Source: Terramyces sp. JEL0728
Taxonomy: Eukaryota; Chytridiomycota; Chytridiomycetes; Rhizophydiales; Terramycetaceae
Direction of reading: 5' to 3'
Assembly (NCBI GenBank): GCA_027603945.1
Contig: JADIIU010000013.1
Coordinates: forward strand, 62,001-126,000
Length of the DNA stretch: 64,000 nucleotides
Part shown: positions 1,369 through 64,000 of the stretch, piece after piece
Layout of the letters: each line of letters begins with the position of its first letter
How positions within the stretch are numbered: position 1 is the stretch's first letter
Position numbers and translations under genes: made by a program
Notes under the pieces: generated by a model
Databases searched by the model: none
Told to the model about the DNA's origin: nothing
Seen by the model: the letters and a program-made list of their open reading frames with translations, nothing else

Positions 1369-3178
1369 TTATTCAGCCAAAGCACAGAGATTAAACCTTT
1401 TTTTTGCAGTCAAAAACTTGTAATCGCCTCGGATTTGGCTGGACCAAAACTTTACTTTAACACTCCATTGGTCACCGTAATACTCGCCTGGCACTTTGAT
1501 GCTGAATTGATCCTGGTATTGTGTGAGTGGCTGGCGATCCCCATCAAACCATTCGATTGACAAAGTTTCATTGAATTTTTTGATTGAAGATCTGAATTGG
1601 GCTAGGGACAGTGGGATTACTTGTACTTTAATCAGACTTTGACACGATAGCACTATTTCGTCAATTAGAGACAGCTGGCTTAACAAATTTGCCCAAAGAC
1701 CTTCAATGCACACTAGATTAGGAGCTCTTACCATCGCAAAAAGTATCTCTGCTCATATCTCTCATTAGACAAGCATCGTTGGTCGGTCGATAAGACACCC
1801 GTCCATCAATATCCCAAGTGGGAAAGGCGCCGATAAACGATTTGCTTTTATGGAATAGTGGTTCTTTTGCAAATTCGTGTAATCTAACAGAACACAACTG
1901 TCGGATTGGAGATTCAGGAGTAGAAGGAGGCAGCCCTTGTTTGAATACCAGCGTATGCTGTCCTTTTGCCAAGGTTTCCCCTTCCCATGCTGAAAATGCT
2001 CGATCAAGGGTTCCAGTGCTTTCCCAAGGCAATCGCTCTCCATCAAAGTATACCTCCAAAGAGTCAGGGACTTCAACTCCGCTTGAACTAATTTCCATTT
2101 TCCAAGTGGCAAACTGCCCGTCGCTGTGGAATTTAATTTCATATTCTCCATCTGCTAGGTCATACCAGGCATAACTACATTAGTATGACTTACTCTTGCA
2201 CACGAATTGCAGAAGTTTCTTCTCTGACGTTATCTGGCTCGGACAACCATTCCTTCCATGGAATCTTTTTAAGGGAATGAGCAGCGTTACATCCGGAATA
2301 TACCTGGCCCCCATCATATTCTTCTCCGACATCAATCATACTATGACCAATTTCATGCCTTAACACAATTGTCCCACTTGTCTCTGAGCTTGTGGAAATT
2401 ACAAATTCGCCACCTAATCCTCCATAATACGGATCATTTCCAATCAGAGTTGGATAGTCGCACGCATACTTTCCAGTTGCTTTACATACCTGTCTTGCTC
2501 TTCGTTGTTTGGAACAGTATATCCCCCTGAGTTCAGTGCCGTCTCTGTACAAGCCAAACGCTGTATCCTTAGGTTTCCCACCAACACCGATCCCATGTTC
2601 CTTCGATGGGACAAACACCGCCCAGATATTATATAATGGCAAAACAGATCCAAAGGTATTTCCTGCCCACATATCGTCGACTAATCTTTTCATATCGGAA
2701 ATAAACTTTTCCCTCTCATCTTTGGTATATCCATCGCCCAGAAAGACAGCATCAATACGATTTTTTGGATCTCCACTCTTGATAATTTCAATCTTCATTA
2801 GTATGGACTTACTACTTCAATTTCATTGGCCAGAGCGTCTAGATCGTCAGGTATATATCTGTCAATAGTTTCACAATGATTTCCAATTTCTTGTTTGACT
2901 ATGTTCTCGTCCAGCCCAACGATTGAGAGTAGAACCGCAGAGCTTCCAGAAACTTGGTGATCTCTGATAGCTGGTGATTTGAGCGCAATAACAGGACGAT
3001 CCTGGTCAATTTTATTGTTCCTTTGGACTTGTTCGATAGGAGATATTTGGCTGCAATGGGTATTGTACTGAAGGATCTTTACACCAAAAAATTCCTCTTC
3101 CTTTACCAAAGTAGGCTGGACTAGGGGGTGCTGGATATTATAGGCATTTATGGTCCAAAGGAGAGTAGTCAGCAGCAT
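1369..3178 (-). CDS. Secreted M64-family (IgA peptidase-like) zinc metallopeptidase
   Basis: Exons: 2813-3178, 2194-2792, 1732-2174, 1369-1712 (583 aa; introns 20, 19, 19 nt). The first ATG giving a plausible signal peptide (MLLTTLLW...) is at 3178. The catalytic motif HEIGH is followed by GEEYDGG, the arrangement of M64 zincins; the upstream DAVFLGDGYT segment is also typical. The C-terminal part after the active site looks like a beta-rich accessory region. The protein is predicted to be exported and to cleave extracellular protein. M64 is mainly a bacterial family, so horizontal acquisition is possible, although the host-type introns show the gene is fully domesticated. The substrate is unknown. 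Confidence 0.75.
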
Positions 3179-3359
3179 TTGTAAATGGTAAAATTTTCGG
3201 ACATCACGGCATAAATAGGTCCAACTTTCTAATAGCAGCTGATCAGCCAGTAAAGTAACTGATATGCTCCATTGTATTCGAGTTGGAATCACTTGGCGAT
3301 ACATTAGTAGAATCCTCATGCTGGGCTTAATTGAAATGATTAGTTTGTATATTATTGAT

Positions 3360-6310
3360 TTAAAATGTTTCCAATTTCCAACCAAACGACACATTTACGT
3401 CTTTCGTCAGCTGAGACAGTCCAAAGTAGTGAGTGTTAGTCCGTAACGTCAATACATTTTCGAATCGTTGATAATTGATAGTCTTGATACGAACAAACGT
3501 ATCCTCAGGTATATCTGAGAGTACAGCTAGGAACGAATCCAGACCAGTTATTGTTGTATCATTGATTTGGACGATCCAATCCAAAGGGGATATACCGTAC
3601 AGTGCTGCTGGCGAACCACTAGAGACCAGGCTACAAAGCACGCCAGTCGGAACATTCTGCATCTGTTGATATACAGAAATTTGCGGCATTTGAAAGACTG
3701 CTCCTGCCCACGACACTATCCTCTCGGTGCCTGTAGTCTTCATTAAATTCAAGTCCACAACTACGTCTACTTCCTTTCCTTCTCTTAGAATTTTCTTTTT
3801 TAGCATACAGTTACCATGTCCACAGAATTAGAGCCAATTTTCGAAATTACATCGTTGAACGTGGAGCAAATACTGTCTTTGACGGTCAAGACAATATCAC
3901 CCGGTAGTAGTTTATCCGCAGTTGGTGTTTCTATCATTAGAACTATATACCAGAAGAAGTTCGGCGAATAAGAAGAATATTGCGTCTTCTCGAGTCGTGG
4001 TGCTCAAACTTTTCAACCCACTCTGAACTGAGTCCTAGAACCCTTGCTTGAGCAATTTGGATATACGTCAACTCTGCTTCAAGCCAATAAATTTGCGGCA
4101 TTCTACCTTCCTGTAGCTCTTTCAATATCGGTTTAACTATTCCAACATCTAAACCCATATAGAAATCTGTTGTTTTCTTTGGAGAATAATTGGTAAAGAT
4201 TGAATGAATACCCTGGATTTCTCCTTTTGCGTTTGCTAAAACTCCACCTCTTCCTATAGGATTTTCAAATTCCATCCCTTCAATATTCATTGGTCTGTAC
4301 GTTGGAGGCAGCGTTTCGTTAACAAAGCACGGCCTTATGTTTGTAACGATAGTTTTTCTAACCAAAACTTCATACGATTTTGTGAGGCAGACTAAATAGG
4401 TCGAATCTCCTTTCACAAGCGGTGTGTCGGATAACCTCGCGCTTTCGACCACCGTATTTCCCAAAAGTTTAGGGTTGTATTGAATGATTGCAAAGTTGGC
4501 GTATTGATGCAGATAGACAAATTTGGCGGGGATTATGATACTGTTGACAAATGTAACAAGAATGTCGCATACACTTGTAGGACATGTTTTTCTGTTGACA
4601 TATATGTATCCTTTCTCTGCATCGAGAACAAACCCAAAGCCCCCAGTATTTTGGTACGCAATGCCATCAATCTTGTAGGGCAATGTAGCTTGGACATACA
4701 CCAATGATTTGACAACAAATTTGGCTGGTCCAAGAGTATCGTCCACATCTAGCGACTTTGCAGTTTGTGGCAGTATTGTTGCTGGATCAAAGCATTTTTC
4801 AAGATCAGAGTAATTCCAATATCCAGTAACGTCTGGGTTAGTTGTGCAGTACCGTCTCGCTTTGCTGATCTGAATGAGTGCCACCTCCAGTCTATTTGCA
4901 AGATGGAAAAGCAAGTCTTGTTGATATCGTTCAGTTGGTAGAACCTAAGCTTAGCATTTAAATACTGGCAGGGCACTCGCTCCGACTCTTTTAATTTGGA
5001 CAATACTTTAATGAATTCTTCGAGTGTATTTGTTGGTAAATTGTTAACTTTGGTAATGATACTCTTCCTCGGAATCCCTCCTTCTCCAAACATATATCCT
5101 GACGAGGCAATGAAAACCCCAGCTACTGGAACCATAAAGCTTCTAGCCATCTGATACGATAAACTGTGGACAATTCCTCCACCAACCTCGACGTACGTAT
5201 CCGGTGTAATAGAGTGTAGATCTTGTACTTTAATCTCCTTTTCCAACTGATGATTTCCTCTCTGAACTGTGACTTTTAAGGTTTTGTCGATATTTGAATC
5301 GAAAAATTGTTCAATTGCGAAAAAGTCTGTTATAATCTCTCCATTAATTTTCAGCAAAATGTCTCCACTCTGATATTAATTTAAAATACTTGTAATAGCC
5401 CATCAGCTGGGCCTTTGGGAAGGATTAATTTCATCGCCATCATTCCAGTAATGTCAGGATATTCCTTGCGCAAGAAAGATTCCATTTCAAAGTCCAACCC
5501 GAGTCGTTTCAGTTCATCATACGGAGAATGCTGGAATATAGTTTGGATTGTCCCTCTCGGTACAGGCAAATTCATCTTGATAAAATCTAGCGCACGAACA
5601 ACCCTCTCCAAAGGTAAAAAGAAGCTCGATGCAGACTTTGTTGCCCCGCCGGCATTAAGAGCGACTGCGTTCCCGTCAATATCCAACACTGGCGACCCTG
5701 AACTTCCTCCAGATGTCATTGAGGCAGATTGGTAGTAAAATGTATTCCAGTCGGAATAGTTTGCGATACCGTAATTTGGCGCTTTCCTATCCAACCTTGC
5801 AATAGTCCCACTAAGAATACTTAGTTTTTCACCTGATATTAATTAAAAATACCGGAATCGTTCCCAACCACCCTTATATCCAATCCCACTCGAGCGTTTG
5901 CCGGACAGAGATTAATTTGAGACACCTGCATTAGCAGATATTACTTTCATATATTTGATGTCGTTAACATTGAACTTGTAAAATCCAAAGTCGTGCACTG
6001 GATCACGATATATTGGGATCAATTTAATTTCTTCCTTGTTGTGAGTAAAAATCGCATCCGCAATGATTGGACCAGGTTGAACTACATGCCTATTTGTAAG
6101 TATAATTCCCAATTCCGCATCAACTACGAATCCTGTTGCTTGAGACGTTCGCTGAGATTCTGTATCAAACGACCGAACTGACATTGATCGGATGCTCACA
6201 ATTGATGGGATTGCTTTTTTCAATGTATTCTCCCACTGCGGCGAATTAAATATTGGTGCAGCAATTTCTTCTACTTCCTCCATTTCTACATCTCTGTTTT
6301 CTTTTTCCAT
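3360..6310 (-). CDS. NMA111: Nma111-like double HtrA serine protease
   Basis: Exons: 5945-6310, 5853-5925, 5390-5832, 4853-5369, 3951-4832, 3815-3930, 3360-3794 (943 aa; the yeast protein is about 1000). The layout is protease domain, PDZ domains, second protease-like domain, PDZ domains. The first domain keeps the triad: His75 in TNRHVV, Asp in HDFGFY, Ser in GGSSGSPV. In the second domain the serine motif is NPIGRGGV, so it should be inactive, as in other Nma111 proteins. The family is nuclear in yeast and linked to apoptosis and heat tolerance. All six introns are 19-20 nt; joining them restores the conserved RVVGND...LSIL and RRWH-like segments. The gene is divergent from the GDE1-like gene across 249 bp. 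Confidence 0.93.
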
Positions 6311-6559: not shown

Positions 6560-8206
6560 ATGGGCAATGATCAAGAGCAGTTGGAAGCAGCTGGTATTTT
6601 CTATTAACATAGTACGGGCTGGATTGAGAGAGAAAGTCACAGAAATAATGAGGACAGGTTCAAACTTTGATGTAGCAGCTGCCTATGAGCTCGCTGTTTA
6701 TTATGCACATCATGACCTAGCGGTTATACTAAGTGCAGATCCACGATTTAAACCGAATCAGGTTATTCAAAAACCAACTGAGATAATTTTATCAGGACGA
6801 AAAATACTGGAGACCGATATACTTGTAGCAGGTCATCTTGGATCGTTTGATTTACGCAGCGAGACAAAGCAAGTATCAGTAGAAGGATTGGAGGATTTCA
6901 ATATTCGAATTCATTCTAAACAAGCTCGCCCCGTTTGCGTTGATTTAGCCCCAACCGAGATTGTCCTGGACGATTTCAACAGCAAAGTATCTTTTTCCTT
7001 TTACCTCCTGACTAGCAACGTAGCACAATCGGTTATAGAATTTGATTTTGTCGTAGACAACAAAGTACGAGCAAAAGCAGTCCAAAAACTAAACACTACA
7101 CCAGAATCCCTGTGGCATGAAAACAAGCCGCTAGGAGGAAGATTGGAAATCCCTGTTTATTCCTTTGAAATGGGGATCATTGGAAATATCACTTTTGAAT
7201 ACACTATCGTTAAACCATTTTTGCATGCAGACGATGGAGGTGCAAAGTTTGGAGGAAACAAAACAGTTCTAGTTGGACACAGAGGCGCTGGAGCAAATAG
7301 AAAGATCAATGTGGATGGGAAATCTAGGTTGCAGTTAGGAGAAAACACTGTAGAATCGCTTATAAAAGGTGGGGAGTTTGGTGCTGATTTTGTTGAATTT
7401 GATGTTCAGTTAACTCAAGATCGTATCCCCGTCATCTATCATGATTGTAATTATCACTAATTTAGTCACCACCACCGAGTTTGGTGTGCATAGCCAAGTT
7501 TCAAACATTAGTTACAATGATTTTGTCTCGTACAGACCTAAAATATCCAGAAGAAACTCTGATTCTCACTTTAGCAAGCATGCACAAATGGATGTTATCA
7601 AACCGAATGGGCCAGGTATTTATGCCATAACAAGGTACCATTCAATCCGCGTTTTGTTCACTTTTGCAAGTCTTTCAAAAGGTGCCTCTAAAAACTGGAT
7701 TCAACATTGAAGTAAAGTACCCAAACCTCGAAGAAGCTCAAGAAGAAACATTATATCACGCGGAAATCAATACTTTCTGCGATGAAATACTTCAAGTTGT
7801 ATTCAAAAACGCAGGGAATAGAAAAGTATATTTTTCGAGTTTCCACCCCGAGATGTGCTTGCTTTTGAAGCTCAAACAAGTATGTATTTCCTGACACCAG
7901 AAAAAATATCCTGTTTTTTACTTGACGGTCGCAGGAGCAAAGATGTATTATGATGTTAGACTCAATAGCTTGGCTGAAGCAGTTAAGGTCGCGCAAGATT
8001 TTAAACTCGACGGGGTTGTAACATATTGCGGGCCTCTAATCGAATGCCCAGGGTTGATCAAGAAAATTCAAAATCTTGGACTGAACATACTTTCATATGG
8101 AGGGAAAAATAATAGCACTGAGGATGCCAAAGTTCAAGTGGACGCAGGTATTAACGGAATCATAGTTGACAATGTCCCAGATATTTATCGAGTTATAAAC
8201 CAATAG
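6560..8206 (+). CDS. GDE1-like glycerophosphodiester phosphodiesterase (no SPX domain)
   Basis: Exons: 6560-6593, 6613-7446, 7466-7615, 7635-7879, 7901-8206 (522 aa; introns 19, 19, 19, 21 nt). The C-terminal half is a GDPD domain with VGHRGAGAN, FVEFDVQLT, YHDF and IEVKYP, the usual metal and substrate positions. The middle region (residues ~75-230) resembles the segment between the ankyrin repeats and GDPD in fungal Gde1. The N-terminus is short, with at most a remnant of ankyrin helices, and the SPX domain of yeast Gde1 is missing. Predicted role: release of glycerol-3-phosphate from glycerophosphocholine in the cytosol. Missing SPX control of phosphate signalling is the main oddity. Confidence 0.88.
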
Positions 8207-8215: not shown

Positions 8216-11200
8216 TTATATATTTTTTGAATATCCAAGACACAGCTTTGCAGCTTTCTTTTTCGCCATTACTTTTGTGTTTCCCGCAGCTTTGCTTATC
8301 TCCAACCCTTTCACAGTGATTATGCAATCATACGATCCTGAATTAGAATTGGTTGCATAGGAGAACTTGATATCCTTTGCATCAATTCCTTGTCCCTGAA
8401 AATATTCCATTAGCATTCTTACTGGGCTGGTGGTTGCAGATTCTGGAGTAATAAAAGTGTCCAAGAAGTGAGCCCACAGAGGGTAGATTATCCCCCAAAC
8501 CTTGTCCAAATCACAATCGCAGTCGATAAACAGTACTGCAATCAACGCTTCCATGACGTCACCCATTATTTTGGGTCCTACAATTAGAGATGCAAACCTT
8601 CAATCAGGGTTTCAAATGGATCAATAAATATTTCACTGCCGTTTAAATATTCCAAATATTCATCTGTATCCCTTTGAATTTGAAATGAACGAACTTGACA
8701 ATAATTGTGCAGTTGCATGGAAAATGCCAACCTTGCCAAACTTTCATTATTAACTGCCGCCTGCTTCAGTTTGGATAGCATCCCTGGTGCTGCTTGAGGG
8801 TATTTTTCAAAGCAGTACTTGATAATCAACAGGTCCAAAATGGAATCTCCAAGAAATTCCAATCTTTCGTAATTGGCTTTGGGATTAAAACTAGGATGCG
8901 TGAAGCATAGTCCCAGCAGTGCCGTGTCCTTGAATGTATACCCAATAGTTTGCTGTAGCTTGTGTATGCTCAATTGAGGATTCTGATTAGAATTCAATTT
9001 TAGTGTCTCCAAGTTGATACTAATGGTATCCCATTCCGGTAAGAGATTCAATTTTGACAAAATATACCAAGCGCCGTTGTCCTTCGTGTGCAAATAGTAC
9101 GCGCCAACCAATGCTTCCAAAAAGTCTGCAAGTGTTTTTCTTCCTGTAGTTTTAACAGGCGGCAACTCTTCCGGATCTGGGTTAATCATTCTCCATGGTT
9201 TTCTGCCAGATGGTGACCAAAAACTGCTAGCAAATGGTACAACTGTAAGATACTTTGCAAATTGGCGCGACATTGCTGTCCTATACAATGTGTTATTAGA
9301 TACAATAACCGACCGTTGTTTCGACAATTCTCCTTCAGACTTGTGTTCTTTTTTCGCATATAAATATAAAGAACTGGCATATTTGAGAAACGAATCTCCC
9401 AAAATTTCCAATCGATCGTAATTTTGAATCTCATCAGCATTGGGTGTAATAAATGCAGGATATATCAGGCATTTTGGAATATTTTTGAAATCAAAATGGC
9501 CAAAAAAGTCGTCAATGGTCGCTGCAATTGTCAATTTCCATAAAATGGTGGGGAATAGGTGCATTGCGACCAAAAACGACTTGGAAACAGGTATAGCAGT
9601 GCAAGCATCTGACAACAATATTGCTTCACGATGCTCTGCTTCCTCTGTTTTGATCAAGCAATTTCGTATCAAAGGGACTGCGTATCCACGAAGGAGATCT
9701 GTATTGCTGGTTATTTCATATCCCAAATCAGTAAAGTAATCCTTGTAGGAAGTCTTTGACTTTTTTGAGCTGCCAGTTTTAATGAATCCATCATTAATGC
9801 CAATGCCAGAAACCTTTTCAAGGTTGAAATATTTGCGGTTGTTGTGTTTGGTGCAAATGACCATTTTTGCAATGTCGACATTCACATTTGACACATTGGT
9901 TGGCTGGTAGTTGGTAAGCATGCTAATCGAGTCCCAATCAATCGTAGTTTCGAGTAAAGGTGCAATATAATACTTTCGTTGTTCTATTTCTCCAAAGTAG
10001 CCAGATTTATCGTTTTTGGCAATTTTTTGGTAGATATTAAGAGCGTGATCCCAAACTTTAGAGGTGTATTGTTCAAGTAAATCCGACTGATCAGTCGATA
10101 ATTCAATTTGGTGAGAATTCCCAAAGGCAACCCGAAACTCTTTTCCTTCAAAATAGAGGACAAATTCTGGGACTTTACTTGCATGGATTGACGCAAATGT
10201 AACAACACATATCTGAATATCAATTTCTGCTATTATAATAGGAGTAATATGATATTCACATAGAACACGCTTTTGAAATGCAGCCGGGCAATAATCTTCA
10301 AGAGCTTCAGCCTGGCTTACCTTTAAATTTTCGATTTGCAGTTTCGCTTTTTGTTTTGGTAACAGTCTGTCATCAATAATGCCATTCTTGAACAAAAAGC
10401 AACAGGTGTTGAACGCAGCGTGAAATTTTGCTAGTCGCTTATTCATTCGTGGGTAGCCAAATACTTTTACTCGTTTGTCGCCCATCACGAATGAACATGA
10501 ATAAACCAGCCCAAAATCGAGTTCTTCCTTCTGCAATATTTCCAATTCATACGAGTTTCCAATTCCATTTTGCAATTGCTCTTGAAATATGCCAATTATC
10601 TCGTCCCAACTTGCTTCTGCCGGCCATTCCTGATTATATTCTAAACTATCTGGCTGAATTACATCTTGAAGTACAGCACAGGTCCAATGTAATAATTGAA
10701 TAGCTCCAGAAGGAAACATTTTTGCCCCAGAGTCTGTTTCTAAAGGTAGATCAAGCTCCCCAGAAATTAATGATATTATTTCATCATCGCTGATATTTTT
10801 ATCAATTTGCAAGGCGGAACCCGACCCCATCAATTGCAATGCGACAGTTCTGGTCAATTCTTCAGTCTTTTTTGCATCTACCACATGTTTCCAATGCCCT
10901 AAATTGTTCCGCTCCACCATTATTATATACTTGGATCCGTTCAGGCTCCGAGCTCTTCCCCTGGATTGAATATATCCAATACTACTTCTAAACAAGTCAA
11001 AAATAACAATCAGATTGCATGTAGGGCTAAACTTAATCAATAAATACATATCAAGCCCCTCTTCGGCAACACGAGTAACGACCAAAGTATTGTAACGCCC
11101 AGATCTAAAATAATTCAGTGTTGCTTTATGCCCTATAAGATTAGATTCGCGTTCTTTGACACCTCCACTGGAACCAGTCAAATAACCACATTTGATAAAA

Positions 11201-12241
11201 GGGAAATCTGCCACTGCGAGTTGATTGATCAAATCACATAGAACAATTGCTGTTGCTTTCCTATCAACGAATATCATGGATCTACCCTGGCTTGTAAAAT
11301 TGGTTCTAATGATCCGCATTAATGTTTGCAGTTTTGGAGGTAATTTCTGAAGAATTTGGAATCCTGGAGCATCGCTTTCCGGATGCTTGCGTTTGTTATT
11401 GAATTTGCCGTACTGCAATTCTGCATACCTCTTTGCAATTGGCAAACCAAATTGCTCCTTTAGATACTTTATCGCATTCAACTGTTTCTTGGTGTCTGAT
11501 TCTCCCTGTTGCTCCATGGCCTGCTGAATGGATACACACATATCATTGAAATCCGGAATGTCAGCCAGATCTGCCCATTTATCGAACTGAACTATAATTT
11601 CTATAATGAATCTGTAAAATACCAGTGATAGGGATAACATAATCCCCAATGTTAGCCCTGTCGATAATGGTAATTATTTTGGAATCAAACAAATCCTGAA
11701 GGTTAGTCATTCGATCCTGCAGCTCTTTTGCTGTTACTATTCCGTGTCCAATTGGAGAGGCAGTCAATCCTAGTATCCTAGGTTTTTTACCCTCTAATGT
11801 ATGGTAATATTCATTCATGATCAAAGAGTAGGGATGCCCTTTGTTTCCATGATGGCACTCGTCGAAAATAACTAGTTCTACGTTTTGCAAATCCACATAT
11901 CCATGTCGTAATAAATTCAAACAAAGCTGTGGAGTCATCACCAAGACCTGATGCACTGCAAATTGTTTCCTCCAGTCGTCATGACTCCAGTTTAATAGCG
12001 ATGCATTTTGCGACGAGTAGTCTCCAACTGAAAGTTCTGACAAGTTCCTAATTGAATTGGCCTGCTGTTGAACGAGGGCATTTGTCGGCGCAAGAAATAT
12101 AGCAAGTGATCCACTGCCAAGTAGTTTTTGTAACAGCAATATTGAAACCAGGGTTTTCCCACATCCGGTATCCAAATAAGTAATAATATTTTCATCAAGT
12201 GCTTTTTCATATAGTTCGATTTGATATGGACGCACTTTCAT
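8216..12241 (-). CDS. DCL: Dicer-like ribonuclease III
   Basis: Exons: 11623-12241, 8598-11600, 8216-8577 (1327 aa; introns 22 and 20 nt). In order: DExD/H helicase with TGCGKT (residues 25-30), DECHH and the QSRGRARS motif of the C-terminal helicase lobe; a Dicer dimerisation region; a probable weak PAZ region; RNase IIIa near residue 934 (LEILGDS and DFLEALVGAYY); RNase IIIb near 1118 (LEFLGDS and DVMEALI); and a C-terminal dsRNA-binding domain. All acidic catalytic residues of both RNase III domains are present, so it should be active. The last intron splits the IIIb domain; removing exactly 20 nt restores EGPKIMGD. The gene shows that small-RNA processing is likely available in this organism. 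Confidence 0.95.
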
Positions 12242-14162: not shown

Positions 14163-17100
14163 TTAGGCATTCTTGACTACTTTGGCAAAGTAAGGGCTCA
14201 TGTATTCAAAGAATGCAAACTGACTAGGGGAAGTGCCATATTTGTAAACAAATCTGCTAGCCAAGTAAGACCCAAAGATTGCCTTGGTGTAGTTTTCCGG
14301 AACTCTTTCCAAGAGAGTGTCTAAACCAACTTTATCAACCAAGAGTTTTGGGAAAGCTTCGTTCATTACAACTTTGCGCAATGGGATATTGTCCCATAGA
14401 GTAGTTTGTTGTAATTCTTCGTTGAGTTTGACGATTGCAAAGGACAAGTCATCTGAAATGTTTGAAATGGGGCGTTTGGTTTCTTTCCATTCTTTCCATA
14501 ATGCTTCAAATTCCAAATCAGCATTGCTTTCAATAATCTTTTGGACAGCTTGGACATATTCCTTGTAGAATTTTGGAACATGGTCTGGTTTAACTTGCAT
14601 GTGTTCATGGAATTCAACATCGTTGAAAGCTAGAGCAGCCAGTACTTCCAGGGATGATGAAGTGACACCGCCTTTGTTTGATGACGCATCCTTGAAAATG
14701 ATTACTCCCTTCTTTTCCAACAGCAAACGAGCATCCTGTGTCAAGAACAAGTTGGCCCCTTCAACAATATACTTGAATCTTGGGGTGCCGTCATCGTAGA
14801 ACATGTGTTGGAAATTGTCAAGCCCGATTGATTCAGGTCTGCCACCACACGGAACAAAGATATCGGCAGAAGAAAGAGGGTTCAAATGGAAATCATTTCT
14901 GAATTTAAGGCCAGAAGGAACAAAAGTGCCATCTACAGTTAAATATTACTTACCAGGCAGAGTAATGTCATTTTCCTCTGTTGAAATCAAGAACCCTTTT
15001 TCAGAGAGTTTAGATTTGTCAAAGTTTATAATCATTAGTCTAGATTCTGCCAATCTGAGTAGCTCGGCACGATCAATTCCTTTTGGATCATACAAGACAC
15101 CAGATCCGTCGACGATACCAATAGTTCTATCATTGGAGATCTTGATTTCGTTAGATCCCAAATCCCCATCGGGACCGCCAGTAACAAATTTAGTGACATG
15201 CTCTTCTTTTAATCCGAGCTTTCTGTAAATGCCCAATACATATTGGTGGACTGAACGAGTAGTCATTCCAAAGGTGTCGTGTGGAATACCACCAATGGCC
15301 TGGCTCTTTCCGGTGGTAAAGGCATTCCAGTAAGAATAATTTCTAAATCAACATTGGAATACCTGGTTCTGGAGTGCTGAGAAGCCCAGTCCATCATGTC
15401 TGCGGTACCTTCATCAGGGCCAAAGAATAAAATTTCTGGTTTCTTGTAGTAGTCGACAACATTAGAGTTTTCGTCCAAAATAAGCAAATCCAAGATAGAG
15501 TCACAGTATTTTTCAAATGCAACTCTAGGTTTGTCTTGGTGGTCGGGATCCAATAAAATAGTTCCTTTTGAGCCGCCTTCTGGGATATCCTTGTTTTTGC
15601 GCTGTTGGGTAGCAGCCAAGCCATAGTTTTCATCCAACAAACTACGCAGGTTAATCGAGTAGTTTTCTGAATTTCTAGATCGGACAATACGAATACCACC
15701 GCGAGCGATATCTCTGAATCTAAGATGGAATCCACGGAATCCAGCACCGACAACCAGGAACATGCCATAAACTGGTCTTGGATATTCGATATCAGACATG
15801 AACGAAGGATCAACTCTGAAAGAAAGGGCAACTTTGGAGGATTTATAAAAGTTGGTCTTCAAAATTGACTTGTTAAACGTGATGTATGACTCAAAGATCT
15901 ACGGTTAAGCAAGTTTACCTTCATTTCGTTAGGATTTTGCACGGTTTTGGCAATCATATCCAAAAGGTCCTGTTCATGCATCGCCTCGCTAGGATCACTG
16001 GCTGTGTGGTGGAGTGAGCTGAAATGTTGGTAACAAGCTTGAACCAGAGAAGGATATCTTTGAATGATATCGAGAATGTATTCTCTGGTAAATGTGTCAG
16101 AACGCAACTTTTTCTTGATGTTGGTCAATACTTCAACATGGGAAACATTGGACAAATCCACAATCTTGGACAATCCTTGATATTCGGATCCCAATCTCTT
16201 TAAAAAGTGTTGAGCAAAGATCCAGCCAACATTTCCATAAATAGATTCTTGAACAGACAACTCCTTTGTTTGAACGAATTGCTGCAAAGAATTGACTGGC
16301 AGGCAATACAGCAAACTGGCTTCTTCAACGACATTTTGAATTACAGCTTCGATTTTTTTGCCATTTCCAGGAATATCTTTTAAATAGAAACTGCAAATTG
16401 TAACACCATTTGAAAACTGATCCACATATTTGCGAGTAGAGGTGATTCCGTAATAATGGAATACGTGTGAAATGGCAGAAAAGAATGAACGGGTGGAACG
16501 ACGCCTGAACCCAATAACAAGTCTCTTTTCGCCAGTGGATGTGTGTTCAAACACTTCAAGGATTGGGCCATTTGCGGACAATACTCTTTCCATTACATCT
16601 TTGAATAATCCGTGGGTTTTTGGAGTAGTTCGTAATAAAAAGTTTTTGTCTGCTACTCTTTGAATATCAGTCATTTCGGCATTGGATGGGAATGGATTAA
16701 CAAAATCACATTTGCGAATCAAATAGCAACGTAATGCTGCAGAAACAGAAGAAACCTTTTCAGTAGAAAGATAGCTTTCAATTCTGTATGGTGTTTCATC
16801 TGAGCCAACATCCAAGTAGGTAGCGTCAATCTGTTTTTCATATCCTTTTGGATGGGATACGCCTAATTCAAATGGCAATTACCTGGTGAGGAAGTATGGA
16901 TATATACAGCCCCAGAATCGGTTTGACGCTTCAAATTAATTTCTGGCTGAGTATCGTCCCTGATAATCGCCTGCACTTTGGCACCATATAATGCAATAAT
17001 ATGCTCTCCAACCCCTTCAGCTGATTCTTCCTGAAAGTAAAAGTCGTCGATTCCTAGATTTCTACGTTAGATTGGACATACTCGTAGAATGACAATACTT

Positions 17101-17305
17101 CGCTATCTACCAATTCTTTTGGAATCAAAGCCTTTTCGTAAATGTAATCCTTGACTTGATTAATTTGATCGGATTTGCTGGTGAATGTAAAGGAAGAGAA
17201 CGCCCTGTTGGTAGTGGAGTAGCATTTGAATGCTTGGATTCTCGACCTGTTTACAGCAGCTAGCCGTACTGAGGACTTTGGAAGTTTGGAGAGGATTCGA
17301 ATCAT
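14163..17305 (-). CDS. GDH2: Mitochondrial NAD-specific glutamate dehydrogenase, large type
   Basis: Exons: 17082-17305, 16883-17061, 15919-16862, 15363-15898, 14954-15342, 14163-14932 (1013 aa; introns 20, 20, 20, 20, 21 nt). The family is the ~115 kDa NAD-GDH that deaminates glutamate to 2-oxoglutarate. Visible hallmarks are FYENLGIDDFYFQ near the N-terminus, LKTNFYKSSKVALSFR, the catalytic region with GGIRIV and QQRKNKDIPEGG, GGIPHDTFGMTT, and DIFVPCGGRPESI. The start at 17305 gives an Arg/Ser-rich N-terminus without acidic residues, as expected for mitochondrial import; an upstream in-frame ATG at 17398 would mask it. Each intron join restores a conserved family segment. Confidence 0.95.
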
Positions 17306-18836: not shown

Positions 18837-19605
18837 ATGACTAGCACCACCATGGCATATCTGGAGGATTATTTAGACAGTAATATTTGCTAATGTAGCA
18901 TTTGAATCGCTACCGATCGAGTTGACGAAACAACTAACTCAAGTAAACCTGTCTAACGCCAGATGCGAGAATTGGACTCTCAGGCACATGAGCTGATGCA
19001 ACAAGCAGCAACAAGCACCCCAGAATTCATTTCTTCCATCCATGATCTTACACATCAAGACCGTCACGAAGAAATCAAAAAATTAATCACACTCTACAAG
19101 ACGTTAATTAAACATGGACAGGATAAGGTATTACTGGCAACCCAGACTTACGATATGGTCGAACGCCATGTAAAGCGATTGGACGAGGATCTGAGCAAAT
19201 TCGAGGATGAACAAATGACTGGACCAAGGGTTATGCCAAAGGAAGAAAAGGTCACTCCCAAGAGTACTGTTGTTTAATATCAGAGCGAAAGAATGAAGAG
19301 TTTAGGGAAAGAGTCAAACCCAGACAACCGCAGCCAAGAAAAGAAAGAAGACTGGTTTCCCTCAGAAGGTAATTGAACCTAAAACCAGCGAATCAAAGGA
19401 TAGTCAAACTGAAGACTTGGTTGAAGACGAAGTGGATCCCAACGAACCTATTTATTGCATTTGCAACCAAGTGAGTTTTGGTGAAATGATTGCCTGTGAT
19501 AACGATGACTGCGCGAAAGAGTGGTTCCACTACAACTGCGTTGGCTTGACTGGTCCCGTCAAAGGCAAATGGTACTGCCCTGCCTGTACAGAATTAATGA
19601 AATAA
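18837..19605 (+). CDS. ING: ING-family PHD-finger chromatin protein
   Basis: Exons: 18837-18879, 18899-18942, 18963-19263, 19284-19368, 19389-19605 (229 aa; introns 19, 20, 20, 20 nt). The N-terminal ING domain reads YLEDYLDTFESLP then MRELD; the linker is basic; the C-terminal PHD finger has [16 protein letters not shown]...[13 protein letters not shown]...KGKWYCPAC, with all eight zinc ligands. ING PHD fingers bind H3K4me3 and ING proteins are subunits of histone acetyltransferase or deacetylase complexes (Yng1, Yng2, Pho23 in yeast). A second ATG at 18852 is an alternative start. The gene lies between two unrelated short genes on the same strand. Confidence 0.93.
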
Positions 19606-46294: not shown

Positions 46295-46397
46295 TCAGAT
46301 TGCTCCAATACAAAAAAAGTGTCCGAGTGAACTTGCCGCATTAAATAAGTACCAACTGGCTATTCCCACCCCAGAATTTACTGTTGGGCAGTTTTGG

Positions 46398-53581: not shown

Positions 53582-55090
53582 TCAGTAAATAAATGGAATC
53601 AACTTGTAAGGTACTTTTTGGCAATATTGGTCCCAGTACTTTCCATACTTGCCGCACAATCTCAAATGGTCACGCTCAATACGTTGACAGAGTAAAATAG
53701 TCATGTAGACAATATAAAAGTATGGCAAAATGTACCCATACCCACAAGTCATACAGAATGCAAGCGACATTAATAAATCACCAACATAATTGAAATGTCT
53801 ACTAATACCCCAGTAGCCAGAGGTTAATAACAATGATCCGTGGACTTTACCGTCAGAAGTAACAAAGTTGGTGCGGATGTATTCAGCAGGCTTACCCCAA
53901 ATCAAACATTTTCCGTTAGTTGATCTTACTATATCCTTTTGGTTGTTGACTGTGCGGAAAATGTAATATCCGACCATTCCAATTGTAAATACGAGTGAAA
54001 AGTATTCAAATGATAAATCTAACGGATGGCGAAGCAAAAAGTGTGATTGGAGCGTATACTATCATTAGCAAAATGTACCATGTATGGCAACCATACAGAG
54101 TCACCCCAAGCCAAGTAAAACCCGAAATGATCGTGGGCAATATCAATGGTTCGCAAATACCAATCCTAAATTAGCAATAATTACTTCGTGGTAAAAAAAG
54201 TCCAACACATAAACAGCATGTAAAAAGTTTAGCAAGACCATTGAATTAGTAACGTATCCAATTTCATTGTATTGGGCAGCAGCAAATGACAGATTAATCA
54301 ATGTCCATGCAACAATACCAGGACGTCCATTATGGAACAGCTTGAAATCAAAGTATTTGCCAAATCTTGGGTTGAATTCAATCCCCATAAACAAATCATA
54401 CATTACTGAGTTGGAGAATTTACGATCTGCTGGATGGGATGGGAAAACATGAGCTTTGAAGTAGGCAAACCCGGTTAAAAAGTATCCGTAAGCAGTAGCT
54501 GCAATCATCAACGATCCCCAGTTGTCTGCAATAATGGAGGCATTGAATAATCCGTATCTTAAAGATCCAATAAGGAATAATGCGTGAGTAACAATCCAAG
54601 CCAATAGCCCATTGACTACATATGGCAGCTTGTGTCCTGCAGGAGTCATTTGGCCACTACAATTAAAAATATTTACTATCCAATCTTGCCAGGCAATAGC
54701 GTATATAGCGCCGCTTGGAAGAACAACCATCCAAAGAACAGCTGGAAACCATAGACTGTGGGTTTAGGAAAGTAATTCATAACGAATTGGTCCCATCCGT
54801 TGCCGAAAACGAATTCGACAGGACTGACAACTGAGCATTGGAACGAATCGCATGCTAGCCAAAAGAACAACACAATTGTTGGGCAGAAGGCCATCATAAA
54901 GAAACACCCTGCTACGGTCCAATTGCTGATTTCTAGATTAAGATTGATTACCCCAAGATCTACCCCAATTGGTAGCCTTTTCTTCTTTGGATTCAACTTC
55001 ATGTTCTGCCTTGCTTTTTTTTACTTCCTTGGCGGCCTTTCTAGAGCGCAGATTTATTCCCTCTGCCTGATCTTGTTTTCCGCTCAACAT
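53582..55090 (-). CDS. DHCR7: 7-dehydrocholesterol reductase (sterol delta-7 reductase)
   Basis: Exons: 54952-55090, 54677-54932, 54185-54656, 54079-54165, 53582-54058 (476 aa; introns 19, 20, 19, 20 nt). A basic N-terminus with NWGRSWE precedes ~9 TM segments. Diagnostic blocks: [32 protein letters not shown] sequence, [67 protein letters not shown] and [13 protein letters not shown]. The [15 protein letters not shown] block fits DHCR7 rather than the C-14 reductase ERG24. It reduces the sterol delta-7 double bond with NADPH in the ER. Ergosterol-making fungi lack it, so a cholesterol-type end product is suggested. Confidence 0.92.
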
Positions 55091-55720: not shown

Positions 55721-56315
55721 TTATATTTCTACAAATTTTTCGTGATAAAATTCCTTCATCTTGTATTCCATTAACTCTGCTGCACCTTCAGTCCAGTCTT
55801 CCTGTGATTTTCCATAAACAGTGAATGGCGGTATTACTGTCCCAGGCGGTATTATCGTACCATCCAATATTTTGCAGCAATCTTTAATAATGACAGATCC
55901 TCCCTTGCATTAGACTTTCTTACAATCACACAATCCTTTCCAATATGCACATATGATCCAATTGAAGCAGCTTCTACCAAAGTATTATCACCAATAAAAA
56001 CATAATCTCCTTGCATTAAATTCAGATACCAACTTTGCACGGAAAGTGACTGAAAACCTGCTTGTACACTTTGAATGGTGGCTTGATAACTACATTTCTT
56101 CCAGCATAGCAGTAAGAACCCATTTGAATTGCAGCCACTTGTCCGGTTACTGCTCTTCGTAAATCTCCTCGTAGGATTGCTTGTCTATCAACAATGCAGT
56201 GATCCTTTAGTCCAATATTGTCGCCCCCATAAATCAATGCATCTTTAGCAATTTTGTTTCCCATCCCGGTAAAAATGAACCCTGCTTTTTGAAATTGAAT
56301 TTTGGGCTGCTCCAT
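55721..56315 (-). CDS. DCTN5: Dynactin subunit 5 (p25)
   Basis: Exons: 56030-56315, 55924-56009, 55721-55903 (184 aa; two introns of 20 nt). A left-handed beta-helix protein: [61 protein letters not shown] and IIPPGTVIPPFTVYG match p25. Length is as in animals (about 182). p25 is part of the dynactin pointed-end complex, which links dynein to membrane cargo. Start at 56315 (MEQPKIQFQ) preferred over the ATG at 56402, which would overlap the divergent SH3 gene. Only 35 bp separate the two start codons. Confidence 0.93.
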
Positions 56316-56350: not shown

Positions 56351-57588
56351 ATGTCCAAAGATGAACTCTACAGCTACTGTCTAAACAGGATAGATAATTC
56401 ACTTGATGGTTAATACGTATTAATTGTAGAATTGCAGAAACGGGACTGGATACAACCAGATGTGCTTGTCAAGCTGAAGCAAATATTCCCACCAACAACT
56501 ATTGGAAAGAAAGCCATAAATTCGGAATCAAATCAAAAATATTCAGCATCTGCTTCGACTTTAAATGGGACGGATGCTTCATTAAAACCTTCGCCTTCCA
56601 TTGAGGGAAAGTTAAATATTTACCATACTCGAAATGTCAGGCATACAGGAGATCCATCTGAAATTATCCAGCCTGTGAAAACCCTCGATATTCCAGTGAA
56701 AATAGAACAGAAGGCACCAGTACGCGACAAATCCCTCAATGAGCATAGAGAGTCTCTCAACCCAAATCTCCCATCGAGAGAAAAGTCTGAAACAAAATCT
56801 CAACCACCAGTAACTTCTAAACCAAACCAAGCACCTAATTTACCGTCAAAATCCTCCAAACCAAGCCCTTCGATCCCTGTACAAACCAAGGTAGGCAATG
56901 TGCCGGTAGAAATATCCGTAGACTCTGCCGTTGCAATGTCTGTTGCTCAGAAAGCAGTTACAAGCGGTGCAGCTCTCCAGCTTGCCAAAGGGTTGAAACC
57001 TAAAGTTGGTGCTGACGGAAATATTGGATTCTCTGTTGATCCAAAATCAGCAGCTCAAGCTGCTAAAACTATGCACGGCACTGGAGCAACAAAGGAATTG
57101 ATTGGTGGAATGTCGATGAAAGCTGATGTTGCTGGCAACCAAATCCCGATATCTGGCAAATCTGTTGTAAATGAGACGCAACAGAAGGGCCCCGCTGTAG
57201 CGCCTAAAGCCAATCCAGCGCCAGAAGGTAGATCTATTTTAGAAGGATTGCCTCCTCCTCCACCTTGGACTTTTACGAAGCCAAAGGTACCACCAGGTAT
57301 GCCTCCACCACTCCACCAGACTAAATTATTATCTACTCACCATACCAATGCAGCACCGCCTTCTTACACAGAGAGTCTTCCGCCAGAACTTCCCAAAAGA
57401 CAAGTAGTTAGGGCAATAAAGGATTTTAGCAGCTCGGAAGATGGTGATCTTACGATCCGAACTGGCGAAGATATCACAGTTATTTCTTCTGGTAATACCC
57501 TGTTAATATAGTCGATGCAAATTGGTATGAGGGTGAAATTAATGGTCGAAAAGGTATCTTTCCCAAGTCATTTGTCGTTTCAAAATAA
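56351..57588 (+). CDS. SH3-domain protein with proline-rich linker
   Basis: Exons: 56351-56408, 56430-57491, 57512-57588 (398 aa; introns 21 and 20 nt). The first exon supplies the only ATG (MSKDELYSYCLNRIDNSLDE). A short helical N-terminus is followed by a low-complexity Pro/Ser/Lys region, a ~90-residue Gly/Ala-rich part with repeated KADVAGN/KVGADGN-like units, a polyproline motif (PPPPPW) and a C-terminal SH3 domain (VVRAIKDFSSSEDGDLTIRTGEDITV ... NWYEGEINGRKGIFPKSFV). The last intron lies inside the SH3. Such fungal proteins (Lsb/Pin3-like) act in actin patch assembly; that is an inference from layout. Confidence 0.85.
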
Positions 57589-57710: not shown

Positions 57711-58838
57711 ATGACTGGAGAAACAACATTTGGCCATGTTCCATACACACATGAGGAGATTCTCGCTTTATCCACTTCGCTAGAGCTTCAGCTTGGACGT
57801 AAGCCCGGTTCTAATCTCAGCTGAATACGTTTCCGAAAGGAAAGGTCCGAATAATGTTAAACTACATTATTTGGAGGGATGGAAGCTTGTTAGCCTCGCA
57901 AATGAGCAGTTTGGATTTAACGGATGGTCAAGCTCAATTATCAACCAAACTGTTGATTTTATTGATTCTGTGGAAGGAAAGTACAATGTTGGAATTTCTA
58001 CAATTGTTCGCGTTACACTCAAGGACGGGACTTTTCACGAAGTAGCTGTACGCTCATAATAGGACGTTGGATTTGGAAGTATTGAGAACTGTAAATCGAA
58101 AGCAGGTGCAATCGAAAAAGCGAAAAAAGAGTCTGTTACTGATGCGCTGAAGAGAGCATGCAAGCATTTTGGAAATAGTTTGGGCAATTGCTTGTATAAT
58201 AAAGAGTACCTGAAAAGGATCAGTCGTATTGGAGCGCCTCAGGTTCTTTTCATTGATGTAGGCAAGAGCTCTGGATCCAAACCTGCTGTACAGACAGAAA
58301 GAACACCGCGTAAACAATCCAGGTGCTCCTCAGAAACAGAGCTCTGTGCCTTTGCAGAAGCAGTCCCATGCAAACCAAACAGAGCCTTCCAAACCAACCA
58401 AGCCTGTAGCTGTTCCCATTCCTACTCCACAGCCAACTGTCCATCAAGCAAACGCTGCAGCACAACCAGTACCGCAGCCAGAAAAAGATGAATTCATGGA
58501 TTCCGGTACTCGACGTTTAATTTAGACGATGAATTGTATATGAATGCCGATTTAGAATGCATCAATGTATCGATTTTGGACAAAGTTCACAATCAAAAGT
58601 ATCGCTCACCTAATCTAGATCTGCAAACTCATTTGAAAATACACCCTCAAATGATCCAGAGGAATTCCGACCTCCAAATAGTTTGGAATTTACCCCTGCA
58701 TCCAAAGTAATTGCACAAACAAAAGCCCAGCCATATAAACTATCCAATAGAACCAATTATCCTAAAAGAAATTCAGACAGTTATCAAAACCAGCAATTAA
58801 AGAAATCAAAGGTAGACGAAATTCCAGGGTTTACTTGA
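57711..58838 (+). CDS. RAD52: Rad52 recombination mediator
   Basis: Exons: 57711-57798, 57821-58041, 58063-58242, 58262-58505, 58526-58598, 58619-58838 (341 aa; introns 22, 21, 19, 20, 20 nt). The N-terminal annealing domain is complete: FGHVPYTHEEI, LGPEYVSERKGP, LEGWKLVSLANEQFGFNGWSSSI, VRVTLKDGTFHEDVGFGSIEN, KAKKESVTDALKRACKHFGNSLGNCLY and YLKRI. The C-terminal half is Pro/Gln-rich and less conserved, as usual. It binds and anneals single-stranded DNA and loads Rad51 in double-strand-break repair. Every one of the five introns must be removed to keep the frame. Confidence 0.95.
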
Positions 58839-61800: not shown

Positions 61801-64000
61801 CTTCTTGGATTGAGTAGCTGTTTGGATCTGAAATGTCCTCAGGCTGTACAAATTGGTTTAGATGGTCAGCAAAGTTGTCCAGCTCTGACTCCTTTTCTAT
61901 TTCCACAGTGCTGTTTCTCCACAGAAATATCCCCCCATCTGCGCCAGCGCTAATCAAGAATGATTGATCATAAGACATTGTCATACCATTCACTGATCCG
62001 CCTATGTCATGCAAGTGTCCCACCCAAATCTGTCCATTAATAACTATACCCCATGGTGGATTTTTGATGTTAAGTTCAGGCATATCCGGTTTCAGGGTGA
62101 TCAGTGTTTGCTGGATTAAATTTTCCATGTTCCTGGCGTATTCGGCGTAACTTTCATGAAAATCAGCCAGATGATTCGCTTTGAGGCTGTATTTATTAAA
62201 ATCGAATCTGATTACAATACTAGCCCCGTGGTTGGATCCCAAAAATAGAAATTGATTTGTGATGTCAGGCCGCATATTAACAATAGTTCCTGGTAAAATC
62301 GCAACCAATTTACTCCAACTTGGATTTGAAAAATTACTAATCCTGACCTCTGATTCACCTTCTTCGTTAATTACCGAACACAAAAAGAACCCTTCGTCAA
62401 GACCGCAGAATGCTGTATACCACAAATGTTCGCCATTTAGGAGCAAGCCCTTTTGTTTTTTCAAAGATTCTACTGAAAGAGATAGATTGTTTTTAGACAA
62501 CAGTAAAGCTTTGGAACTAGATTTTTTCTCCAGGGTGTTTTCCGCATTGTCTTCTGGTTTTACTTCCACTTTTGCTTCTTTGACTTTTTCTGGGATTTTG
62601 TATTTCCAAGATTCGACCTTCAACAATGCATGACTAATCTCATAAGAAGTTGTGGAATCAAACACAAATTCTGCCGGGACAAACAAGCTGTGGATGATTC
62701 CATTGGAGAGATTAACCACCAGTCTCCTTCCAGTGACTGCCGTCCCTTTCTTACCTCCACTAACAGTTTGGTCCTGTGAATTTATTTGCGTAACGCTCTT
62801 CACTGGATTCTCAAAATTCACGAAACCTACAGGCGTGATTGTTACCGAACTTTTCGTAAACGGAAGGCTTATTTTTCCATCCGCATCTTTTTTAAAGTCT
62901 AGATTGAAGAGGAAGATTGTTCCATCATCTGAAGCCGTTATCATTAACTTTCCGTCACTGGTAAAATAAATCAGAGTAATCGCCTTTTTGTGGGGTTTGA
63001 GCACAAATTGGACAATGAATCCGCTGGCTACTGTTGATACAATTCTTATTACACCGTCAACAAATCCAAGCGCAACAGTTGAACCCATCGCATCCAGGTT
63101 CTAATTTAAAAACATTTTACAGCTGGGATATACGATATATAACTTCCGCCTTGTGGGTAATGTGCTTTGTTTATCAATGTTCTTGCAATATAGTCATACA
63201 CATGAAGGTTGCCGTCTTTTCCAAAGGTGGACATCTGGTGTTTTAGTGGGCTGGTCCCAACTCCAGCTACTGGTCCAGAATGGAAAGACAGCACTTTTTC
63301 GCTGCTCCTCTTATGCAAATCCAATTTCATCAAATGGCCTTGCTGGTCCTGAATTAAATAATCGTGTGATGAATTCGGGAATCTTATAATAGATTTAATC
63401 TAGATGAACAACCAAATACCTTGACTTCCTTTGCAATAAGTATTTCATCAATAGGCTCCATTTCAAATACTCTGGGTGTAGAAACTGAGCTTCCACCTTC
63501 TCCAGAGCCTGTGGTAACATCTGCGTTATCAATTGTTTCTAAATCCCAAACACGGACAAATCCATCCTCTCCACCCGTGATTACTTCGCCCTCTCCAAGC
63601 AATATGACTTCAATGTGTCCTTGATGGCACGGCTTTTTCCCTTTAATGCCAATTTCACATTTAATCATGCCGCCATCCCAAAGCAACAAGTTTCCAGTCT
63701 CGGTGCTGGACAAGACCTTCCCGTCGGGCAATTGCATAAAAGAAGCAATATCCGATAATTCAGACGCTCCAAATTTACCCAAGTAGCCTTGTAGCTTCAA
63801 ACCTGTAAACGTTGAAGACATTCTCCAGAATTTAATATGGCCCATTCCAGAGGTGGTTAATATTCCATCGTTTTCTTGAGAGAAACTGACTCTGAATACA
63901 TCCTACTTATTAAATTGACAAACCTGAGAGAATGCTTTACTTCTCAGTATGATAGCTTCCTCCTTCCAATTCCAAATCGTGAGCATGTAGTCTGGGTCTG
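58868..64000 (-). CDS. CFAP44: Cilia- and flagella-associated protein 44, 5' end outside window
   Basis: Exons visible: 63924-64000 (partial), 63420-63902, 63121-63399, 61271-63100, 60990-61250, 60505-60969, 60409-60484, 60253-60389, 60069-60233, 59825-60049, 58868-59803 (about 1644 C-terminal residues; ten introns of 19-21 nt). N-terminal WD repeats ([55 protein letters not shown]) are followed by long coiled coils with [11 protein letters not shown] and [29 protein letters not shown] blocks that identify CFAP44. It belongs to the axonemal tether/tether-head complex that links inner-arm dynein f to the doublet. Its presence implies a motile flagellum at some life stage. Confidence 0.93.

What the first reader, a model, noticed from the sequence alone, without database searches (positions are those of the whole stretch)
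1369..64000. Near-uniform 20-nt spliceosomal introns across the whole window
Seen in the sequence: 94 introns in 28 genes, about 25 of 19 nt, 51 of 20 nt, 14 of 21 nt, 3 of 22 nt and one doubtful 25 nt. Most run GTANN...(C/T)TAA(T/C)...AG with only ~4-6 nt between the branch-like adenosine and the 3' end. Removing them restores conserved motifs in Dicer, GDH2, Nma111, RAD52, DHCR7, CFAP44 and others. Known cases of similar length are nucleomorphs (18-21 nt), Paramecium and Stentor. For a fungus-like genome this is remarkable and raises the question of how U2 and U1 fit on one 20-nt RNA.
Basis: partly seen in the sequence, partly recalled or inferred. Interest (0 to 1): 0.92.

Follow-up and report, generated by a model that had tools for sequence, protein, structure and literature searches.

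The report
Twenty-nucleotide introns in a chytrid fungus
A chytrid fungus appears to interrupt most of its genes with introns that are almost all 19 to 22 letters long, close to the shortest known, and one of its splicing proteins has lost key contact residues in a way that fits introns with no room for the usual landing site.

Summary
Confirmed and extended. The window matches a 197,215-base contig of Terramyces sp. JEL0728, a chytrid. My gene model gives 89 GT-AG introns in 30 gene models (22/48/16/3 of 19/20/21/22 nt), plus one 21-nt GC-AG intron. Twenty 10-kb pieces of other contigs show the same peak; candidates above 23 nt equal a scrambled-motif control (28 v 28). The public GDH2 equals my five-intron model at 1013 of 1013 residues. 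New: length is the sum of two nearly fixed distances, 5' site to branch A (14-15) and branch A to intron end (5-6), also in introns chosen without the motif. A canonical U2 RNA gene and U2AF65, SF1, SF3B1 and U1C genes are present. U2AF65 of Terramyces and Boothiomyces has H-C-H in RRM1 where nearly all of 120 listed homologues have F/Y-A-F, as expected if no pyrimidine tract is read. Open or against: no RNA evidence; U1 and U6 RNAs not found; one 68-nt intron in SF3B1; no length-specific avoidance of decoys. Uniform ultra-short introns are a known kind; my searches found no report in a fungus.

The parts
1369..3178 (-). M64-like peptidase gene; introns 2793-2812, 2175-2193, 1713-1731
3360..6310 (-).
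6560..8206 (+). gene model g3; introns 6594-6612, 7447-7465, 7616-7634, 7880-7900
8216..12241 (-). Dicer; introns 11601-11622, 11027-11047, 8578-8597
14163..17305 (-). NAD-dependent glutamate dehydrogenase GDH2; introns 17062-17081, 16863-16882, 15899-15918, 15343-15362, 14933-14953
   Evidence: 1013 of 1013 residues identical to public P0121; junctions gap-free in 55-59 of 58-59 relatives each
17771..18792 (+). gene model g7 (no Pfam match); introns 18046-18064, 18110-18129, 18296-18314, 18578-18596
18837..19605 (+). ING-family PHD protein; introns 18880-18898, 18943-18962, 19264-19283, 19369-19388
19667..20442 (+). RING-finger protein; introns 20071-20091, 20321-20340
21826..25286 (+). gene model g10 (channel-like by eye, not searched); introns 22007-22026, 22783-22801, 22891-22911, 24469-24488
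25300..26753 (-). gene model g11; intron 26504-26523
26964..28741 (+). gene model g12 (leucine-rich repeats by eye, not searched); introns 27162-27181, 27275-27294, 28327-28346, 28658-28677
28831..33945 (-). LTN1 (listerin): my models g14 and g13, one open frame across a GC-AG intron; introns 33481-33501, 33115-33134, 32625-32644, 32377-32396, 32011-32031, 31862-31880, 29751-29771, 29661-29681, 29348-29367
   Evidence: the name rests on g13, g14 was not searched
29964..29984 (-). 21-nt GC-AG intron, branch-like A at position 15 and 6 nt after it
   Evidence: found by eye and frame
34110..34728 (-). thymidine kinase; introns 34556-34575, 34288-34307
37002..37920 (+). gene model g17; intron 37745-37766
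38027..39062 (+). enolase-phosphatase E1; introns 38462-38481, 38614-38633
40980..42679 (-). M17 aminopeptidase; introns 41803-41822, 41489-41509
45065..46105 (-). gene model g21; introns 45684-45702, 45497-45516
46221..48220 (+). gene model g22; introns 46969-46989, 47177-47196, 47576-47595, 47724-47742
48264..50880 (-). gene model g23; introns 50691-50709, 49026-49045, 48411-48429
53582..55090 (-). 7-dehydrocholesterol reductase; introns 54933-54951, 54657-54676, 54166-54184, 54059-54078
   Evidence: differs from the public Terramyces protein only by residues conserved in relatives that the public model lacks at the first two introns
55721..56315 (-). dynactin subunit 5; introns 56010-56029, 55904-55923
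56351..57588 (+). gene model g28; introns 56409-56429, 57492-57511
57711..58838 (+). RAD52; introns 57799-57820, 58042-58062, 58243-58261, 58506-58525, 58599-58618
   Evidence: the first two fall in the gap-free part of the alignment to human RAD52

Best explanation
These are U2-type spliceosomal introns in the nuclear genome of the chytrid Terramyces sp. JEL0728, shortened to a near-fixed 19-22 nt. SHOWN from sequence: 5' site (A)AG|GTAATT, branch motif YTAAY, YAG end; length is the sum of two almost fixed distances, 5' splice site to branch A (14 or 15) and branch A to intron end (5 or 6). The U2 snRNA gene keeps its GUAGUA branch box; U2AF65, SF1, SF3B1 and U1C genes are present. In U2AF65, RRM1 has lost the two RNP1 aromatics while RRM2, the UHM and (by eye) the partner motifs in U2AF65, SF1 and SF3B1 remain. 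INFERRED: the segments are removed from RNA; the intron is recognised as one unit; U1 and U2 cannot sit on a 14-15 nt spacer in the usual side-by-side way, so U1 probably hands over the 5' site before or while U2 engages; there is no room for a pyrimidine tract between branch A and AG, so U2AF65 acts mainly as a protein bridge (SF1/SF3B1 to U2AF35 on the AG) rather than as a tract reader.
For: Length peak: with GT-AG only, no motif and a flat 14-80 length prior, 182 of 323 introns are 19-22 nt; with the motif and a flat prior 256 of 340; with the full model 358 introns in window plus 20 pieces, 82/177/67/24 of 19/20/21/22 nt, 1.79 per kb CDS. Two distances over 421 introns: (14,5) 89, (14,6) 93, (15,5) 91, (15,6) 57; shuffled interiors are flat. 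That set was chosen by a model that includes the motif; in the 182 chosen without it, 140 have a YTRA, of which 129 have 5-6 nt after the A and 125 have the A at 14-15. Public GDH2 identical at 1013 of 1013. Nine junctions of GDH2 and DHCR7 gap-free in 52-59 of 53-59 relatives each. U2 snRNA 140.2 bits. U2AF65 (251.7 bits, split by introns and below that family's cut-off of 310.3), U1C (43, 51), SF1 (44), SF3B1 (45, 66, 81). RRM1 RNP1: H-C-H in Terramyces and Boothiomyces; in the 120 best-listed of 1519 homologues the first aromatic is F in 74 and Y in 44, the second F in 117.
Against: No RNA data. Synonymous-codon shuffles show no depletion of decoy 19-21 nt matches beyond other lengths. U1 and U6 snRNA genes were not found. 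A 68-nt intron in SF3B1 shows that longer introns persist. 27 of 421 introns have a weak branch motif and 42 of 182 motif-free ones have no YTRA. The U2AF65 change could be a neutral lineage change; an environmental homologue (P0243) has S and I at these positions and its intron lengths are unknown.
Confidence: 0.85

Rival explanations
1. The 19-22 nt introns are real, but a second class of longer, perhaps regulated, introns exists and was missed because the gene model expects short ones.
For: The SF3B1 gene has a 68-nt intron (L040:1670-1737) whose removal gives a gap-free match to human SF3B1 across the junction; it has GTAAGT, CTAAC and 6 nt after the branch A, and a CCCC/GGGG hairpin, -15.1 kcal/mol, z -1.35.
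Against: Allowing 24-200 nt gives 28 candidates (the SF3B1 one among them), the same number as a scrambled-motif control; motif counts at 23-149 nt are near background.
Confidence: 0.15
2. The segments are not spliced RNA but removed as DNA or read through by frameshifting, or they are assembly indels.
For: No RNA evidence was available; frame breaks alone would look alike.
Against: A strict 5' motif, branch motif and AG, with a branch motif that can pair with the U2 box found in the same genome; U2, SF1, SF3B1, U2AF65 and U1C genes are retained, and the four protein genes read here hold such segments themselves; indels would not share a motif or a length.
Confidence: 0.03
3. They are U12-type (minor spliceosome) introns.
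For: Short fixed branch-to-3' distance and strong branch motif.
Against: The 5' site is GTAATT and the branch YTAAY with 5-6 nt after A; neither matches the U12 signals (recalled). U2 snRNA is present; minor snRNAs were not searched genome-wide.
Confidence: 0.02

Closest known systems
Chlorarachniophyte nucleomorph introns (Bigelowiella natans, 18-21 nt; PMC6461891, passages read)
   Same: Nearly the same length range, many introns (865; about 3 per kb of coding sequence), U2 branch box kept.
   Different: There no evident 5' motif beyond GU and no evident branch motif, in a relic nucleus, with shrunken U1 and U5. Here strong 5' and branch motifs in a 15-Mb assembly of a fungus.
Heterotrich ciliate introns (Stentor coeruleus, 15-16 nt; PMC9505925, abstract and first of three parts of the results read)
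   Same: Fixed branch A position and a 5-nt tail after it; major spliceosome.
   Different: Branch A at position 10 or 11 and no strong branch consensus; all five snRNAs were found there. Here branch A at 14-15 with a strong consensus, and U1 and U6 not found.
Mikrocytid introns (16-17 nt; PMC10245619, passages read)
   Same: Uniform tiny introns with conserved sequence.
   Different: 224 introns in the genome of a parasite with 17-19 spliceosomal proteins identified; here 89 introns in 64 kb, and the four spliceosomal protein families searched for were found.
SPF45-dependent short human introns (PMC8363638, passages read)
   Same: Truncated pyrimidine tract; U2AF65 is replaced there.
   Different: The model intron is 56 nt; SPF45 was not looked for here.
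Paramecium and Nyctotherus introns of about 25 bp (PMC5014332, search listing with start of abstract only)
   Same: Genomes with only ultra-short introns.
   Different: Longer, and an unrelated lineage.

Membership tests
U2-type spliceosomal introns | GT-AG ends with extended 5' motif | tested here: met
   one GC-AG exception; +5 is T in 53% and G in 18%
U2-type spliceosomal introns | Branch motif able to pair with the U2 GUAGUA box | tested here: met
   YTAAY motif (also in introns chosen without it), U2 snRNA with GUAGUA
U2-type spliceosomal introns | U1, U4, U5, U6 snRNAs present | tested here: inconclusive
   U1 and U6 not found by Rfam or patterns (41 of 233 and 48 of 1328 first-look candidates were scored); U4 and U5 not searched genome-wide
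U2-type spliceosomal introns | Removed from the RNA | not testable with these tools
   no RNA reads; only protein-junction evidence
Uniform ultra-short introns (nucleomorph, Stentor, mikrocytid kind) | Narrow length range near 15-21 nt across the genome | tested here: met
   on the window plus 200-247 kb (1.3-1.6%) of the 15-Mb assembly; 24 of 358 are 22 nt and 6 are 23 nt
Uniform ultra-short introns (nucleomorph, Stentor, mikrocytid kind) | Fixed branch A position | tested here: met
   344 of 421 at position 14-15; 373 of 421 with 5-6 nt after it; 125 and 129 of 140 in motif-free introns with a YTRA
SPF45-type, U2AF-independent short-intron splicing | SPF45/RBM17 replaces U2AF65 | not tested
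   no search made for SPF45
U12-type introns | RTATCCTT 5' site and TCCTTAAC branch site (recalled) | tested here: not met
   consensus tables

The most novel reading that the evidence does not exclude
Terramycetaceae have converted early 3'-splice-site recognition: the intron is read as a single ~20-nt unit by two molecular rulers (5' site to branch A 14-15 nt; branch A to end 5-6 nt), U2AF65 has given up reading a pyrimidine tract with RRM1 and serves as a protein bridge, and U1 and/or U6 have changed along with the 5' site, whose consensus is GTAATT instead of the usual GTAAGT (recalled).
Probability: 0.3. Interest if true: 0.87.

Novelty: new variant of a known kind. Interest (0 to 1): 0.78.

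Why it matters
The papers seen here put uniform ultra-short introns in a relic nucleus, ciliates and a reduced parasite. A chytrid fungus with strong splice signals that keeps the early splicing factors tested would be a good place to ask how U1, U2 and U2AF share 20 nt of RNA. The U2AF65 change gives a specific, testable link between intron geometry and a splicing factor. It also warns about public gene models in this family: the Terramyces DHCR7 model lacks conserved residues at 2 of 4 introns, and a Boothiomyces model skips an exon exactly between two of these intron positions.

Tried and rejected
Decoy avoidance: synonymous-codon shuffles gave sense counts 0.86 of expectation at 19-21 nt (z -1.85), no lower than at other lengths (0.72 at 26-28 nt, z -4.34); rejected as evidence.

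Longer introns: 28 candidates of 24-200 nt against 28 in the control, so no general claim; the SF3B1 one rests on homology. Its hairpin does not shorten it to 20 nt and is not significant against shuffles (19 of 200 fold as well).

Junction test, first version: on a multiple alignment two of the four DHCR7 junctions scored 0 of 60 gap-free, because insertions in some relatives opened columns there; pairwise alignments gave 57 of 59 for both.

U6: two weak Rfam hits (27.4 and 26.9 bits, cut-off 44) on near-identical loci lack the AGC triad; a 26-base U6 core pattern with up to 3 mismatches had no hit; the one hit of a second pattern lies where Rfam finds nothing and looks like coding sequence. 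U1: none by Rfam; the single pattern hit looks like chance and was not followed. No Rfam match in the window; in 29 further loci one tRNA.

Papers: the searches listed none whose title or abstract start described such introns in a fungus; the library lacks most subscription papers, and one search showed 25 of 787.
Full report
WHAT AND WHERE. The window is bases 62001-126000 of contig C13 of a 15.0-Mb, 231-contig assembly. C13 is 197,215 bases long, the length printed for the contig of two public proteins of Terramyces sp. JEL0728 that match spliced window genes. Terramyces belongs to Terramycetaceae, Rhizophydiales, Chytridiomycota. I infer that the window is from that strain.

IS IT THERE. 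A mechanical scan, blind to motif, finds an excess of GT..AG segments of 19-21 nt whose removal joins two open frames (18, 36, 14). It is not clean: longer lengths reach 19, and seven other dinucleotide pairs reach 8-22 at 20 nt without a peak of their own. With a branch-like motif required, 20 pieces of 10 kb from other contigs give 43, 61, 20 and 8 at 19-22 nt, and 0-7 at every other length of 12-149 nt except 13 at 125 and 8 at 138. A small gene-finding model found 30 gene models and 89 introns in the window, 22/48/16/3 of 19/20/21/22 nt, and 358 introns in 141 gene models over window and pieces (82/177/67/24 of 19-22 nt, 6 of 23, one each of 18 and 25; 1.79 per kb of coding sequence). That model expects short introns; with a flat length prior of 14-80 nt 256 of 340 are 19-22 nt, and with the motif also removed 182 of 323. 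With the length prior shifted by +5 to +20 nt the window yields 12-20 introns with a gain of 116-199, against 90 and 1302, which bounds false calls at about a fifth.

PROTEIN EVIDENCE. The public GDH2 is identical to my five-intron model at all 1013 residues, so the depositors' gene model must yield the same spliced product. Nine junctions in GDH2 and DHCR7 are crossed without gaps in 52-59 of 53-59 relatives each, by pairwise alignment. In DHCR7 the public Terramyces protein differs from mine in only two places: it lacks WGRS at the first intron and has C for [18 protein letters not shown] at the second; both stretches are conserved in most of the seven other relatives aligned. I infer that longer introns were chosen there. 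The Boothiomyces macroporosus model lacks exactly the exon between my third and fourth introns, which suggests, from protein alone, that it shares these positions. Thymidine kinase, enolase-phosphatase, aminopeptidase and RAD52 match solved structures once spliced; in RAD52 the first two introns fall in a gap-free stretch. Dicer and a trypsin-like PDZ protease show their domains; CFAP44 was not tested. U1C is telling: its zinc finger scores 52.4 bits over profile positions 7-38 unspliced and 69 bits over 1-38 spliced.

ANATOMY. Consensus AG|GTAATT: +5 is T in 53% and G in 18%, +6 T in 62%. An EM-fitted branch motif is YTAAY, weak in 27 of 421 introns from 35 sources. The branch A lies at position 14 (182) or 15 (162), and is followed by 5 (199) or 6 (174) nt; the four combinations hold 330 of 421, and introns with shuffled interiors show flat distributions. 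The 421 were chosen by a model that includes the motif, so I repeated the count on the 182 introns of 19-22 nt chosen by frame and GT-AG alone: 140 have a YTRA, with 5-6 nt after it in 129 and position 14-15 in 125. So 19, 20 and 21 are sums of two nearly fixed distances. Phases 0/1/2 are 171/115/87, and 55 of 70 introns of length divisible by three hold an in-frame stop. The LTN1 gene also has a 21-nt GC-AG intron with branch A at 15 and 6 nt after it.

MACHINERY. A U2 snRNA gene with intact GUAGUA box scores 140.2 bits. U1C, SF1 (44), SF3B1 (45) and a U2AF65 with both RRMs and a UHM (38, 51, 67) are present, and SF3A3 was recognised by eye; these genes carry the same small introns. The last 600 residues of SF3B1 align to human SF3B1 with one single-residue gap. 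By eye, RW-type partner motifs remain in SF3B1 and SF1 and a YW motif in U2AF65 (their meaning is recalled). U1 and U6 snRNAs were not found, but only 41 of 233 and 48 of 1328 first-look candidates were scored, and the assembly may be incomplete.

U2AF65. In the 120 best-listed of 1519 homologues, RRM1's RNP1 core is F or Y in 118 and F in 117 at the two aromatic positions; Terramyces has H and H, and among the 120 only Boothiomyces shares this; one environmental homologue, P0243, has S and I. RRM2 is unchanged. That these aromatics contact pyrimidine tracts is recalled from published structures. With 5-6 nt after the branch A there is no room for a tract, so relaxed selection on RRM1 is the simple reading.

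MECHANISM. Shown: sequence architecture, presence of the listed factors, the U2AF65 change. Inferred: removal from RNA, one-unit intron recognition, sequential use of U1 and U2 on a 14-15 nt spacer, and U2AF65 as a bridge to U2AF35 (not searched). A human precedent for U2AF65 losing its role on truncated tracts is SPF45 (PMC8363638, passages read); SPF45 was not looked for here.

AGAINST. No RNA. No length-specific avoidance of decoys. A 68-nt intron in SF3B1, gap-free against human SF3B1 once removed, although longer introns are not in general above control. The sample outside the window is 1.3-1.6% of the assembly.

KNOWN CASES. Nucleomorph 18-21 nt without evident 5' or branch motifs (PMC6461891), Stentor 15-16 nt with branch A at 10-11 and a 5-nt tail (PMC9505925), mikrocytids 16-17 nt (PMC10245619). 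[quoted passage not shown] The tail of about 5 nt is shared with Stentor; the longer first distance and the kept motifs are not. My searches found no report of such introns in a fungus (list in Tried and rejected). I file this as a new variant of a known kind.

Noticed in passing
L040:1670-1737 (G000:C17): A 68-nt intron in the SF3B1 gene, in a genome of 20-nt introns, with a CCCC/GGGG hairpin; possibly regulatory.
   Followed up: partly
window 29964-29984 (-): A 21-nt GC-AG intron in LTN1 that obeys the same branch distances.
   Followed up: yes
window and L004-L023, introns: The 5' site has T at +5 (53%) rather than G (18%), which would weaken the usual pairing to U1 and U6 (recalled); neither RNA was found.
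   Followed up: partly
L034: In the U1C gene two introns of 21 and 22 nt are separated by an exon of only 10 nt; with it the zinc finger is complete.
   Followed up: partly
P0241 (Boothiomyces macroporosus): The public U2AF65 model also carries PF17136 (a ribosomal-protein domain, recalled), apparently a merged gene model; L026 has a ribosomal-protein-like gene (by eye) just upstream of U2AF65.
   Followed up: no
P0243 (environmental protein): A U2AF65 homologue at 54% identity that also lacks the RRM1 aromatics; its intron lengths are unknown.
   Followed up: no
G000 contigs C18, C3, C26, C42: Near-identical kinase hits recur within one contig at spacings of about 62, 29, 46 and 30 kb: segmental duplications or assembly duplicates.
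   Followed up: no
L002 and L003: Two near-identical loci with a U6-like stretch (27 bits) that keeps ACAGAGA but not the AGC triad.
   Followed up: partly
window 12785-14005 (+): Intronless ORF with two cysteine-rich repeats followed by a nuclease-like region (by eye, not searched).
   Followed up: no
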